Assembly (NCBI RefSeq): GCF_007970805.1 | Contig: NZ_CP042433.1 | Coordinates: 4,154,001 to 4,218,000, forward strand | Reading direction: 5' to 3' | From: Flavisolibacter ginsenosidimutans | GTDB lineage: Bacteria; Bacteroidota; Bacteroidia; Chitinophagales; Chitinophagaceae | Length of the DNA: 64,000 bases | In this document: positions 11,665-14,629 of the stretch, piece by piece | How the letters are laid out: every line of letters starts with the position of its first letter | Position numbering within the stretch: the first letter of the stretch is position 1 | Notes under the pieces: generated by a model | The model's database searches: none | What the model was told of the DNA's origin: nothing | Seen by the model: only the letters and a program-made list of their open reading frames with translations | Made by a program: the position numbers and the translations under genes

Positions 11665-13377
11665 TTAGTTCAACTGCCTCGCCAAAACAACGGCCTGCTT
11701 AAAACTTTTCTTCTTCCCTTGCAGGTTAAAAATCTCGGTAAGCACAACGTACGTACCGATGGATAGTTTGGTGTGGTTCTCGCCAAGACCATCCCAAATC
11801 CAACTTCCTTTTAAACCGAGTAAATCATTTTTTACCAATTGCCTTACCAATCGTCCACTTGCGTCAAAGATGAAAACGTTGGCAACGTATCCAGGTTCTT
11901 CTACTTTGTAATTGACGTCGGCAATGTCATCACGGCCATCGTTATCCGGCGAAAATATTTTGGGTGAAACGTCTATCGTTGCTTTTACGTCTTCTGGCCG
12001 TTTGTATTGTGAGTTCTTATACGTCGGTGTCCCGTAGCCAGCGGTTGCCGCCGCCGAGTGCCAGTTGTTTTTGCTTTGCGAAGCGGCACCGGGGTCAATT
12101 CTTTCCAATGCAACGCCTTCATCATCGTTGATTAAACCAAACTGCCAATCCTTGTTATAAACCACTTCGTCAACGATGGTTCCGTTCAGGTCTATCAAAA
12201 CAACGTTGCCTTTGTCATCGGGATAAGACGGAAGGGAAGAAAGCTGCAACAAAGCGTCTTCGTTCTTTACAAAGTATTGGCCTTTCAAAACCGAAGCATC
12301 TTCCGTTACAACAAGATAATCATCCGGAAAAAGATAGAACGGGTCTTCGCTTATTTTCTTTAACGATGCAACTAGGCCGCCACTGCTTCTGTTGGCAACG
12401 TAAAGTTTTGAAGCGTCAATAATTTTTTTGCTGCGGTTGTAAACTTCAACGTAATCGCTGCCGGGTGATTTTGGGTTGAAAAGAATTTCGTTTATCACTG
12501 CATCGTTTGAAATTGGTGTTTGCGGTAAACCAATCCTTGTTTTGTTATAAGCACCGATGGCGTTGCCTTTGCAATCGGTAACGTTGGATGCGGTTATCGT
12601 GTAAATCGTTGATGGTTGCAAGGGTGAATTCAGTTTTAGTTGTACCGCGTTGAATTGCGATGCAACGCTTAAAGCCGAAGCAATGCTTAATCCATTAATG
12701 GAATAATTTGAAACCGCTGCACCCGACGAGCTATCAAGCGGTTCGTTAAACAACAAAACAATATTCAAACTATCCGGGGTATATGCTCTTTTCAGTTGCG
12801 GCGGTGTTGCATCGGTGTTTGTTCCGTTTACCGAATTAGTTTTTCCCGGCGTGCCACCCAAATTGTTGATGCTTGCTTTCCAGTTTTCTTTTCCGCCGCA
12901 GGGATTTTTTGCGTCAATCATTTCCAAACTCCAGCCGCCGTCTTTCTTTGCTTCGTTGCCGTACCAATCGCTTGTGTAGGCTACGCAATGAATGACTTTG
13001 TTCTGCGGCGAACGGAGTGTGAGCACATCGCCTTCATTGTCCAGAGAGGGAAAGGAAGCAACGCCGATTGTCCTTCCATAAACGGAAAACGCAGCCACAT
13101 TGCTGTTGCTGCAAAGAACCACGACGCTGTCGGGTTGTAAAACAAACGAAGCGGTAATTGTAGCCGTACTTGTTGCGTCGCTTAATTTCCATCCACTCAA
13201 ATTAAAAGCGGTAGACGAAACATTTCTAATCTCGATGTATTCTGCGTTTGGCAGGCCAACCACCGGCGTCGGGTCAGCCATAATTTCGGTGATGACCATA
13301 TCATAACGGGCGGCGGTTTGCGCCTTTGCGCAAAGGCAACCGCACAGCAAAAGCAGCAGCAGGTTAGTTTTGGACAT
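11665..13377 (-). CDS. Exported lamin-tail / FlgD-like surface protein
   Basis: 570 residues with a signal peptide (MSKTNLLLLLLCGCLCAKAQ). A first lamin-tail domain (~25-155) shows ITEIMADPTP, YIEIRNVSS and FNLSGWKLSD. A central Ig-like part (~190-290, IVLLFNEPLDSSSG) is like SbsA-type domains. A second lamin-tail copy begins INEILFNPKSPGSDYVEVYN (~295). The C-terminal ~100 residues (FSPDNDGRDDIADVNY, GRLVRQLV, WDGLGENHTKLSIGTYVV) are an FlgD-Ig/CHU_C-like module. Such C-termini accompany cell-surface export in Bacteroidota, often by type IX secretion. The role, perhaps adhesion or a nuclease partner, is not known. Confidence 0.82.
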   Translation of the reverse strand: MSKTNLLLLLLCGCLCAKAQTAARYDMVITEIMADPTPVVGLPNAEYIEIRNVSSTAFNLSGWKLSDATSTATITASFVLQPDSVVVLCSNSNVAAFSVYGRTIGVASFPSLDNEGDVLTLRSPQNKVIHCVAYTSDWYGNEAKKDGGWSLEMIDAKNPCGGKENWKASINNLGGTPGKTNSVNGTNTDATPPQLKRAYTPDSLNIVLLFNEPLDSSSGAAVSNYSINGLSIASALSVASQFNAVQLKLNSPLQPSTIYTITASNVTDCKGNAIGAYNKTRIGLPQTPISNDAVINEILFNPKSPGSDYVEVYNRSKKIIDASKLYVANRSSGGLVASLKKISEDPFYLFPDDYLVVTEDASVLKGQYFVKNEDALLQLSSLPSYPDDKGNVVLIDLNGTIVDEVVYNKDWQFGLINDDEGVALERIDPGAASQSKNNWHSAAATAGYGTPTYKNSQYKRPEDVKATIDVSPKIFSPDNDGRDDIADVNYKVEEPGYVANVFIFDASGRLVRQLVKNDLLGLKGSWIWDGLGENHTKLSIGTYVVLTEIFNLQGKKKSFKQAVVLARQLN

Positions 13378-13458
13378 GATACGAATCTAAAAATTTTTTA
13401 CACGGAAACGAAAGAACAGGATGCACCGAAAAGTTTTTGCAATTATATTCGCTTCGCA

Positions 13459-13521
13459 ATGCAAAAAAGTAAACAGACCAAACGCACAAAGAAACAATTC
13501 CTCAGAAGGGAAGGTGTGTAA
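13459..13521 (+). CDS. Possible 20-residue Lys/Thr-rich leader peptide
   Basis: An ATG-started 20-codon frame containing five Lys and two Thr codons, including adjacent Lys codons at 13489-13494, and ending TAA. It lies 86 bases before asd and 27 bases before a terminator. GGGAAGG at 13508-13514, inside its last codons, is exactly complementary to CCTTCCC at 13551-13557 in the terminator's ascending arm. This is the layout of a translation-coupled attenuator. Lys and Thr are end products of the pathway asd serves. Expression is unproven. Confidence 0.4.
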   Translation: MQKSKQTKRTKKQFLRREGV

Positions 13522-13547
13522 CGTTTGGTACGTTCAAAATAAATTAC

Positions 13548-13575
13548 AGGCCTTCCCCAACCGGAAGGCTTTTTT
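13548..13575 (+). terminator. Intrinsic terminator upstream of asd (putative attenuator)
   Basis: A nine-pair stem (13548-13556 with 13563-13571, including G-U) with loop CCAACC and six Ts. Its ascending arm can pair instead with 13508-13514, giving an antiterminator. The asd start codon is 31 bases beyond. Confidence 0.65.
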
Positions 13576-13606
13576 GTTAAACAGTCAAACCATCAAACGT
13601 CAAAAA

Positions 13607-14629
13607 ATGAAAGTTGCAGTCGTTGGTGCCACCGGTCTTGTGGGCACAAAAATGTTACAGGTTCTTGCCGAAAGAAATTTTCCTGTTGATGAACTCATTC
13701 CCGTTGCTTCCGAAAAATCGGTGGGCAAGGAGGTGGAGTTTAAAGGAAAAAAATACAAGGTCGTAAGTATGCAGGATGCCATTGCGCTGAAACCCGCCGT
13801 GGCTTTGTTTTCTGCCGGTGGCAGCACCTCGCTTGAGTGGGCGCCGAAATTTGCCGAAGCCGGCATTACGGTGATTGACAATTCTTCCGCCTGGCGCATG
13901 GACCCGGCAAAACCTTTGGTTGTTCCGGAAGTAAATGCGAACGTCTTATCTGCTGATGACAAGATCATTGCCAATCCAAATTGCTCGACTATTCAAATGG
14001 TAGTGGCGCTACAACCGCTGCACAAAAAATACGGCATCAAACGCGTGGTGGTTTCTACTTATCAAAGTGTAACCGGCACGGGCAAAAAAGCCGTTGACCA
14101 ATTGAACAACGAACGCGATGGCAAGGAAGGAGAGATGGCCTACAAGTATCCAATTGACTTGAACGTGATTCCGCAAATCGATGTCTTCCTCGACAACGGC
14201 TACACCAAAGAGGAAATGAAAATGGTGAATGAAACCAAAAAAATCATGGGCGATGATTCCATTCGCGTCACCTCAACCACCGTTCGCATTCCCGTTGTTG
14301 GTGGCCACAGCGAAAGCGTGAACATTGAGTTTGAGGCCGATTTCGATTTAGCCGAAGTAAAGCAACTCTTAAGCGAAGCACCCGGCATTGTTGTGCAAGA
14401 CGAACCTTCGCAACAACTTTATCCCATGCCTTTGTGGGCGCACGAAAAAGACGAAGTTTTTGTCGGAAGAATTCGCCGCGACGAAACACAACCCAACACG
14501 CTCAACATGTGGATCGTGAGCGACAACCTTCGCAAAGGCGCCGCTACCAACGCTGTGCAGATTGCAGAGTATTTGTTAGAGAAAGGCATTCTACAAAAAG
14601 AAGCGGAGTTGAGCGCAGCGATTAGTTGA
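13607..14629 (+). CDS. asd: Aspartate-semialdehyde dehydrogenase
   Basis: 340 residues from ATG 13607 (MKVAVVGATGLVGTKML). It reduces aspartyl phosphate to aspartate semialdehyde, the branch point to Lys/diaminopimelate, Thr and Met. The Rossmann GATGLVG motif is followed by the NPNCSTIQM active-site cysteine (~124), QSVTGTGKKAV, and RIPVVGGHSESV with the catalytic His. A longer frame reaching 13421 runs through the terminator and is rejected. The possible leader peptide and terminator upstream suggest amino-acid-responsive attenuation. Its TGA starts an octamer repeat tract. Confidence 0.95.
   Translation: MKVAVVGATGLVGTKMLQVLAERNFPVDELIPVASEKSVGKEVEFKGKKYKVVSMQDAIALKPAVALFSAGGSTSLEWAPKFAEAGITVIDNSSAWRMDPAKPLVVPEVNANVLSADDKIIANPNCSTIQMVVALQPLHKKYGIKRVVVSTYQSVTGTGKKAVDQLNNERDGKEGEMAYKYPIDLNVIPQIDVFLDNGYTKEEMKMVNETKKIMGDDSIRVTSTTVRIPVVGGHSESVNIEFEADFDLAEVKQLLSEAPGIVVQDEPSQQLYPMPLWAHEKDEVFVGRIRRDETQPNTLNMWIVSDNLRKGAATNAVQIAEYLLEKGILQKEAELSAAIS

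What the first reader, a model, noticed from the sequence alone, without database searches (positions are those of the whole stretch)
13459..13575. Possible leader-peptide attenuator controlling asd
A 20-codon frame with five Lys and two Thr codons precedes a terminator just upstream of asd. GGGAAGG (13508-13514), in its last codons, is exactly complementary to CCTTCCC (13551-13557) in the terminator's first arm. A ribosome stalled at the Lys pair (13489-13494) would leave GGGAAGG free to form the antiterminator; one that reaches the stop would cover it and allow termination. Lys and Thr derive from the Asd product. The logic matches classical attenuation, which is little documented in this phylum.
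Basis: partly seen in the sequence, partly recalled or inferred. Interest (0 to 1): 0.7.

Follow-up and report, generated by a model that had tools for sequence, protein, structure and literature searches.

The report
Lysine leader-peptide attenuator before asd
Just upstream of the lysine-pathway gene asd lies a tiny lysine-rich reading frame and an RNA switch that should stop transcription when lysine is plentiful; the whole device is kept by natural selection across the bacterial family Chitinophagaceae and also sits before other lysine genes there, which points to a lysine-sensing switch of a classic kind not previously reported for lysine as far as I could find.

Summary
Window 13444-13606 holds a Bacteroidota -7 box, a 20-codon ORF (MQKSKQTKRTKKQFLRREGV*), a segment A (GGGAAGG) at its end, and an intrinsic terminator 31 nt before asd (13607-14629). 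A covariance model found the element upstream of 102 of 125 asd genes sampled in the family (Chitinophagaceae by named records) and gave no strong hit outside it. In 98 aligned leaders the ORF is in frame in 96, four Lys codons are kept in 79-89, and the stop codon lies at segment A in 97. The antiterminator (A:3), the terminator (3:4) and an unreported pause-type hairpin (1:2) all show compensatory changes; A:3 was not used to fit the model. The same element precedes dapA in six genomes, and an analogous one precedes an aminotransferase(-lysC) gene in six; Lys is kept there and Thr largely lost. So lysine, not threonine, is the likely signal. No lysine riboswitch was found in 38 relatives. 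I found no report of a lysine leader-peptide attenuator, though the key comparative survey (Lopatovskaya 2010) was not readable. Nothing here shows transcription, translation or regulation directly.

The parts
13444..13451 (+). Putative -7 promoter box TATATTCG (sigma-ABfr consensus TAnnTTTG); no clear -33 box
   Evidence: TAnnTTnG box ends 4-11 nt before the leader ATG in 76 of 86 leaders with such a box; consensus and its centring at -7 from PMC7366714
13459..13521 (+). Leader peptide ORF MQKSKQTKRTKKQFLRREGV*, probably near-leaderless
   Evidence: in-frame ATG in 96 of 98 leaders, frame open in 96/96
13489..13494 (+). Lys-Lys control codons AAG AAA; the last Lys codon ends 14 nt before alignment column 57, the second G of segment A
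13477..13484 (+). Segment 1 (ACCAAACG), within the Thr-Lys-Arg codons; pairs with segment 2
   Evidence: (centroid)
13508..13515 (+). Segment A (GGGAAGGT), antiterminator strand at the end of the leader ORF
13522..13529 (+). Segment 2 (CGTTTGGT), 3' arm of the pause-type hairpin 1:2
13550..13557 (+). Segment 3 (GCCTTCCC), terminator 5' arm, also partner of segment A
13563..13575 (+). Segment 4 (GGAAGGC) and T run, terminator 3' half
13607..14629 (+). asd, aspartate-semialdehyde dehydrogenase, 340 aa, 31 nt after the T run

Best explanation
A ribosome-mediated (leader-peptide) transcription attenuator that senses charged tRNA-Lys. Transcription starts a few bases before the leader ATG (inferred). 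A ribosome translating the leader stalls at Lys codons when charged tRNA-Lys is scarce; it then covers segment 1 but leaves segment A free, A pairs with segment 3 before segment 4 is made, and polymerase reads on into asd. When lysine is plentiful the ribosome runs to the stop codon, which lies at segment A, covers A, and the 3:4 terminator forms. After ribosome release, hairpin 1:2 can hold A in its loop and favour termination. Shown here: conserved ORF, Lys codons, stop position, spacing and three covarying helices. Inferred: transcription start, translation, stalling, termination and the lysine response.
For: Element upstream of 102 of 125 sampled asd genes; named carriers include Niastella yeongjuensis, Limnovirga soli, Filimonas, Flavihumibacter and Parafilimonas. 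A:3, not used in fitting the model, pairs in 92.9% of cells with 25 double-change cells against 7.0 in shuffles; 1:2 has 55 vs 17.1; 3:4 has 36 vs 9.5. In-frame ATG in 96/98; leader frame open in 96/96 against 2/96 and 48/96 for the other frames; Lys at the four motif positions in 82, 89, 88, 79 of 98; stop codon within -5 to +12 nt of A in 97 of 98, counting the two without ATG. Last Lys codon ends 6-14 nt before A. Nascent RNA ending at segment 3 folds A:3 in 97/98 with a ribosome on the last Lys codon and 0/98 with a ribosome at the stop (the second result follows largely from masking A). Same element before dapA in six genomes, and analogous ones with different stem sequences before an aminotransferase(-lysC) gene in six, Lys kept and Thr mostly lost. 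No -7 box between terminator and asd in 97/98 leaders. No lysine riboswitch in 38 relatives while controls ring.
Against: No expression, ribosome-profiling or terminator data were available. With the full RNA at equilibrium and a stalled ribosome, the terminator still wins in 80 of 98 predicted folds (the window's own fold favours the antiterminator), so the model needs A:3 to form first. Without a ribosome the nascent fold favours A:3 in 56 of 98 leaders, so the untranslated default is unclear. Related sequences inflate shuffle statistics. Lys codons are A-rich and segment 1 overlaps some of them, so part of their conservation may be structural. Some asd genes, including three genus members with the upstream region held (L008, L010, L013), gave no match.
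Confidence: 0.87

Rival explanations
1. Same attenuator, but the sensed amino acid is threonine or Lys and Thr jointly, since asd feeds both branches.
For: asd is common to both branches; Thr at motif positions 3 and 6 in 75 and 53 of 98 asd leaders.
Against: Thr is less conserved than Lys; the second Thr is lost in all six dapA leaders, and Thr is absent or marginal in the lysC-type leaders; a separate Thr/Ile-rich ORF precedes thrA in the same genome.
Confidence: 0.12
2. A constitutive small RNA or small-peptide gene that ends at the terminator, with asd transcribed separately.
For: The terminator is a good intrinsic one; its transcript would be a discrete RNA of about 120 nt.
Against: Gap to asd is 31 nt in the window and no -7 box lies in it; 0 of 50 gaps of 60 nt or less and 1 of 48 longer ones have one; A:3 covariation has no role in this model. 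A trans role for the released RNA or peptide is not excluded.
Confidence: 0.06
3. An RNA element bound by lysine, tRNA or a protein (riboswitch, T-box or regulator-controlled terminator), the ORF being incidental.
For: Alternative pairing with a terminator is common to riboswitches as well.
Against: No Rfam match at gathering score, and only a sub-threshold Phe_leader match (19.7 bits, gathering 55) in the permissive local scan; no lysine riboswitch in relatives; strong coding signature and stop-codon placement; the lysC-type elements differ in helix sequence but keep a Lys-containing ORF.
Confidence: 0.04

Closest known systems
Classical ribosome-mediated attenuators (trp, his, thr, leu, ilv leaders of Enterobacteria)
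   Same: Short ORF rich in codons for the end product, alternative antiterminator and terminator, ribosome position decides.
   Different: Control codon is lysine; the antiterminator strand A lies at the end of the ORF inside the loop of hairpin 1:2, so 1:2 excludes A:3 by topology instead of sharing a strand with it (in trp, 2 pairs with either 1 or 3; from general knowledge); near-leaderless ORF; phylum Bacteroidota.
Bacteroid-trp RNA (RF01692, Weinberg 2010, PMC2864571)
   Same: Candidate cis-regulatory RNA in Bacteroidetes; its link to trp genes is from my own knowledge.
   Different: No Rfam match to the window element; different amino acid and genes.
Sinorhizobium meliloti SEP5 ORF upstream of a gene called aspartate dehydrogenase in the paper (PMC10117765)
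   Same: Small ORF with six Thr and three Lys codons in a 5' UTR, suggested there as a leader peptide for Thr/Lys metabolism.
   Different: Alphaproteobacteria, Thr-dominated, no alternative structures described in the passages read; homology not tested.
asd RNA motif (RF01732, Lactobacillales)
   Same: Name, and association with asd.
   Different: No Rfam match to the window element; different phylum.
Lysine riboswitch (RF00168)
   Same: From general knowledge, controls lysine genes in several bacteria, often through a terminator.
   Different: Senses lysine itself; absent from 38 relatives searched.

Membership tests
Ribosome-mediated transcription attenuator | Short ORF with control codons for the pathway product | tested here: met
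   96/98 in-frame ATG, four Lys codons at 79-89 of 98
Ribosome-mediated transcription attenuator | Intrinsic terminator between ORF and structural gene | tested here: met
   helix 3:4 covaries
Ribosome-mediated transcription attenuator | Alternative antiterminator using the terminator 5' arm | tested here: met
   A:3 covariation, not fitted by the model
Ribosome-mediated transcription attenuator | Stop codon and control codons placed so that the ribosome covers or frees the antiterminator strand | tested here: met
   Stop -5 to +12 nt from A in 97/98; last Lys codon 6-14 nt before A; footprint size assumed, not measured
Ribosome-mediated transcription attenuator | Structural gene depends on read-through from the leader promoter | tested here: inconclusive
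   No -7 box between terminator and asd in 97/98; starts not mapped
Ribosome-mediated transcription attenuator | Leader is translated and read-through responds to the charged tRNA | not testable with these tools
   Needs reporter assays, ribosome profiling or term-seq
Lysine riboswitch RF00168 | Covariance-model match to the lysine aptamer | tested here: not met
Bacteroid-trp RF01692 | Covariance-model match | tested here: not met
asd RNA RF01732 | Covariance-model match | tested here: not met

The most novel reading that the evidence does not exclude
The first lysine-specific leader-peptide attenuator: a family-wide regulatory element of Chitinophagaceae that takes the place of the lysine riboswitch, has an unusual 1-A-2-3-4 layout and a near-leaderless leader ORF, and is found before asd, dapA and, with changed helix sequences, the aminotransferase-lysC operon.
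Probability: 0.6. Interest if true: 0.65.

Novelty: new variant of a known kind. Interest (0 to 1): 0.6.

Why it matters
Lysine pathways are usually credited with riboswitches, T-boxes or repressors; a lysine leader-peptide attenuator would add an amino acid to the classical list (to my knowledge) and give Bacteroidota a well-supported case of this mechanism. It also lends itself to experiment because carriers include cultured type strains. That the element, or one like it, precedes different genes of one pathway in different genera allows study of how attenuators spread and re-specialise.

Tried and rejected
Sigma-70 promoter scan found nothing, as expected for this phylum. Rfam gave no match at gathering score and one sub-threshold Phe_leader match. 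Other hits of the model in the window's genome (E 0.013 and above): the two best were inspected and are not attenuators. dapA and the lysC-type aspartokinase of the window's own genome have no such leader in the bases read. The model hits in other families of the order near E 1e-3 that were inspected were ordinary terminators; two in the class were thrA leaders. The possibility that asd starts further upstream (a 402-codon frame from 13421) was dropped because the conserved start is 13607. Ten literature searches found no lysine leader-peptide attenuator; the comparative survey by Lopatovskaya et al. 2010 (cited in PMC4833913) could not be read.

Full report
The observation checks out. The sequence at 13459-13521 is a 20-codon frame MQKSKQTKRTKKQFLRREGV*, GGGAAGG is at 13508-13514, CCTTCCC at 13551-13557, and a terminator with a T run ends at 13575. 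asd starts at 13607 and is aspartate-semialdehyde dehydrogenase. The nearest large ORF upstream, 11665-13377, is on the other strand, so a plus-strand terminator here has no obvious upstream gene to serve. Taken alone the window evidence is weak (z -2.3, terminator count near expectation).

Comparison makes the case. I fetched regions upstream of asd from the genus and a sample of the family, where a leader was visible at once. A covariance model R1 built from 73 leaders with only helices 1:2 and 3:4 imposed matched 98 of 100 upstream regions in which I had seen signs of the element, and four of the remaining 25: 102 of 125 in all. Some of these are the model's own training sequences. In the window's genome it matches once strongly (E 5.9e-14). 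In 396 genomes of the order and 395 of the phylum, strong hits lie only in the same family. Named records show the family is Chitinophagaceae: the model finds the element in Niastella yeongjuensis, Limnovirga soli, Filimonas, Flavihumibacter and Parafilimonas, and gave no hit for Pedobacter, Mucilaginibacter, Sphingobacterium, Spirosoma, Dyadobacter, Flavobacteriaceae or Saprospiraceae records.

The ORF is under coding selection. In 98 leaders, 96 have an in-frame ATG; among these the frame is open in 96, against 2 and 48 for the other frames. The motif K-H-T-K-R-T-K-K keeps Lys at its four Lys positions in 82, 89, 88 and 79 leaders; Thr at the two Thr positions in 75 and 53. Third positions of the Lys codons are almost only A or G, while the third position of the second Thr codon uses all four bases. 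The stop codon lies within -5 to +12 nt of segment A in 97 of 98 although peptides end in different ways (..EGA*..KKHS*..KKPL*).

Three helices covary on the CM alignment A2. A:3 was not part of the model and is the fair test: 92.9% of cells paired, four pairs with double changes, 25 double-change cells against 7.0 in shuffles, and clearly better than slid partners. Shuffle counts ignore relatedness.

Geometry fits stalling. The last Lys codon ends 6-14 nt before segment A. Assuming an Escherichia coli-like footprint, nascent RNA ending at segment 3 folds as A:3 in 97 of 98 leaders with the ribosome on the last Lys codon, and in none with it at the stop; the latter is largely a consequence of hiding A. 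With the whole leader present at equilibrium the terminator wins in 80 of 98 stalled cases, so antitermination must be kinetic there; the window's own leader favours the antiterminator. Without any ribosome the nascent fold favours A:3 in 56 of 98, so the untranslated default is open.

Promoter and near-leaderless start. A TAnnTTnG box ends 4-11 nt before the leader ATG in 76 of the 86 leaders with such a box. In Bacteroides thetaiotaomicron the promoter element is centred at -7 and 5' UTRs below 10 nt are about 3.7% (PMC7366714). The inferred 5' UTR here is only a few bases. None of the 50 leaders with a gap of 60 nt or less, and one of 48 with a longer gap, has a -7 box between terminator and asd.

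Lysine is the likely signal. Six genomes carry the same element before dapA, a gene of the lysine branch, with peptides such as MQLIKKHTKRVKKHSVYREG* and MTMIKKYNKVSKKRSILQEG*: the second Thr is gone in all six, Lys stays. Six genomes carry an element of the same design before an aminotransferase gene (with lysC next in the two operons read), with different stem sequences (GGTAGGC or GGTAAGC, GCTTACC, GGTAAGC) and peptides such as MTRKLHKSKKHLPNR* and MMNNKPYKKDKKRIPQR*; whether these are homologous to the asd element or convergent I did not settle. The dapA and the lysC-type aspartokinase of the window's genome have no such leader in the bases read. No lysine riboswitch was found in 38 relatives, while four control genomes rang.

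Against known systems: it works like a classical leader-peptide attenuator and meets the defining features that sequence can test; read-through dependence is only indirectly supported, and translation and the response to lysine cannot be tested here. It differs in control amino acid, in layout (A lies in the loop of 1:2, so the two are mutually exclusive by topology rather than by sharing a strand) and in its near-leaderless ORF. Ten literature searches gave no lysine attenuator. The nearest leads are an S. meliloti ORF with Thr and Lys codons (PMC10117765) and Bacteroid-trp RNA (PMC2864571). Leaderless leader ORFs as such are known, e.g. trpL of S. meliloti (PMC10117765). Lopatovskaya et al. 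2010 was not readable, so priority is uncertain.

Noticed in passing
L216 (G000:C1, upstream of 2046635), L217-L219, L221-L223, L225: thrA in the window's genome and most genus members read is preceded by a Thr/Ile-rich ORF (MSATTTITITTP* in the window's genome) ending in or next to a short hairpin, as in thrL; no clear T-run terminator was seen.
   Followed up: partly
L258 (G528) and L261 (G838), upstream of a bifunctional aspartokinase gene: Thr/Ile-rich leader ORFs (MYNSTIIITIIITTGRNL*, MNFIITTTTISTTTTISSCRKVCL*) followed by terminators with a complementary upstream segment, in other families of the class.
   Followed up: partly
G000:C1:5018137-5018196 and 16 other places; similar stretches in L023, L027, L029, L035, L044: A dispersed repeat of about 60 nt (AACGCACAAGTGAGTGACACAAC...), 17 matches in the window's genome, one upstream of dapA; none found in the window with a 21-base core pattern. 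In several relatives a similar sequence separates the attenuator from asd.
   Followed up: partly
L229, L232, L236, L241: Attenuator-like leaders before an aminotransferase gene (homologue of the one before lysC) in a subset of the family, with stem sequences different from those of asd leaders.
   Followed up: partly
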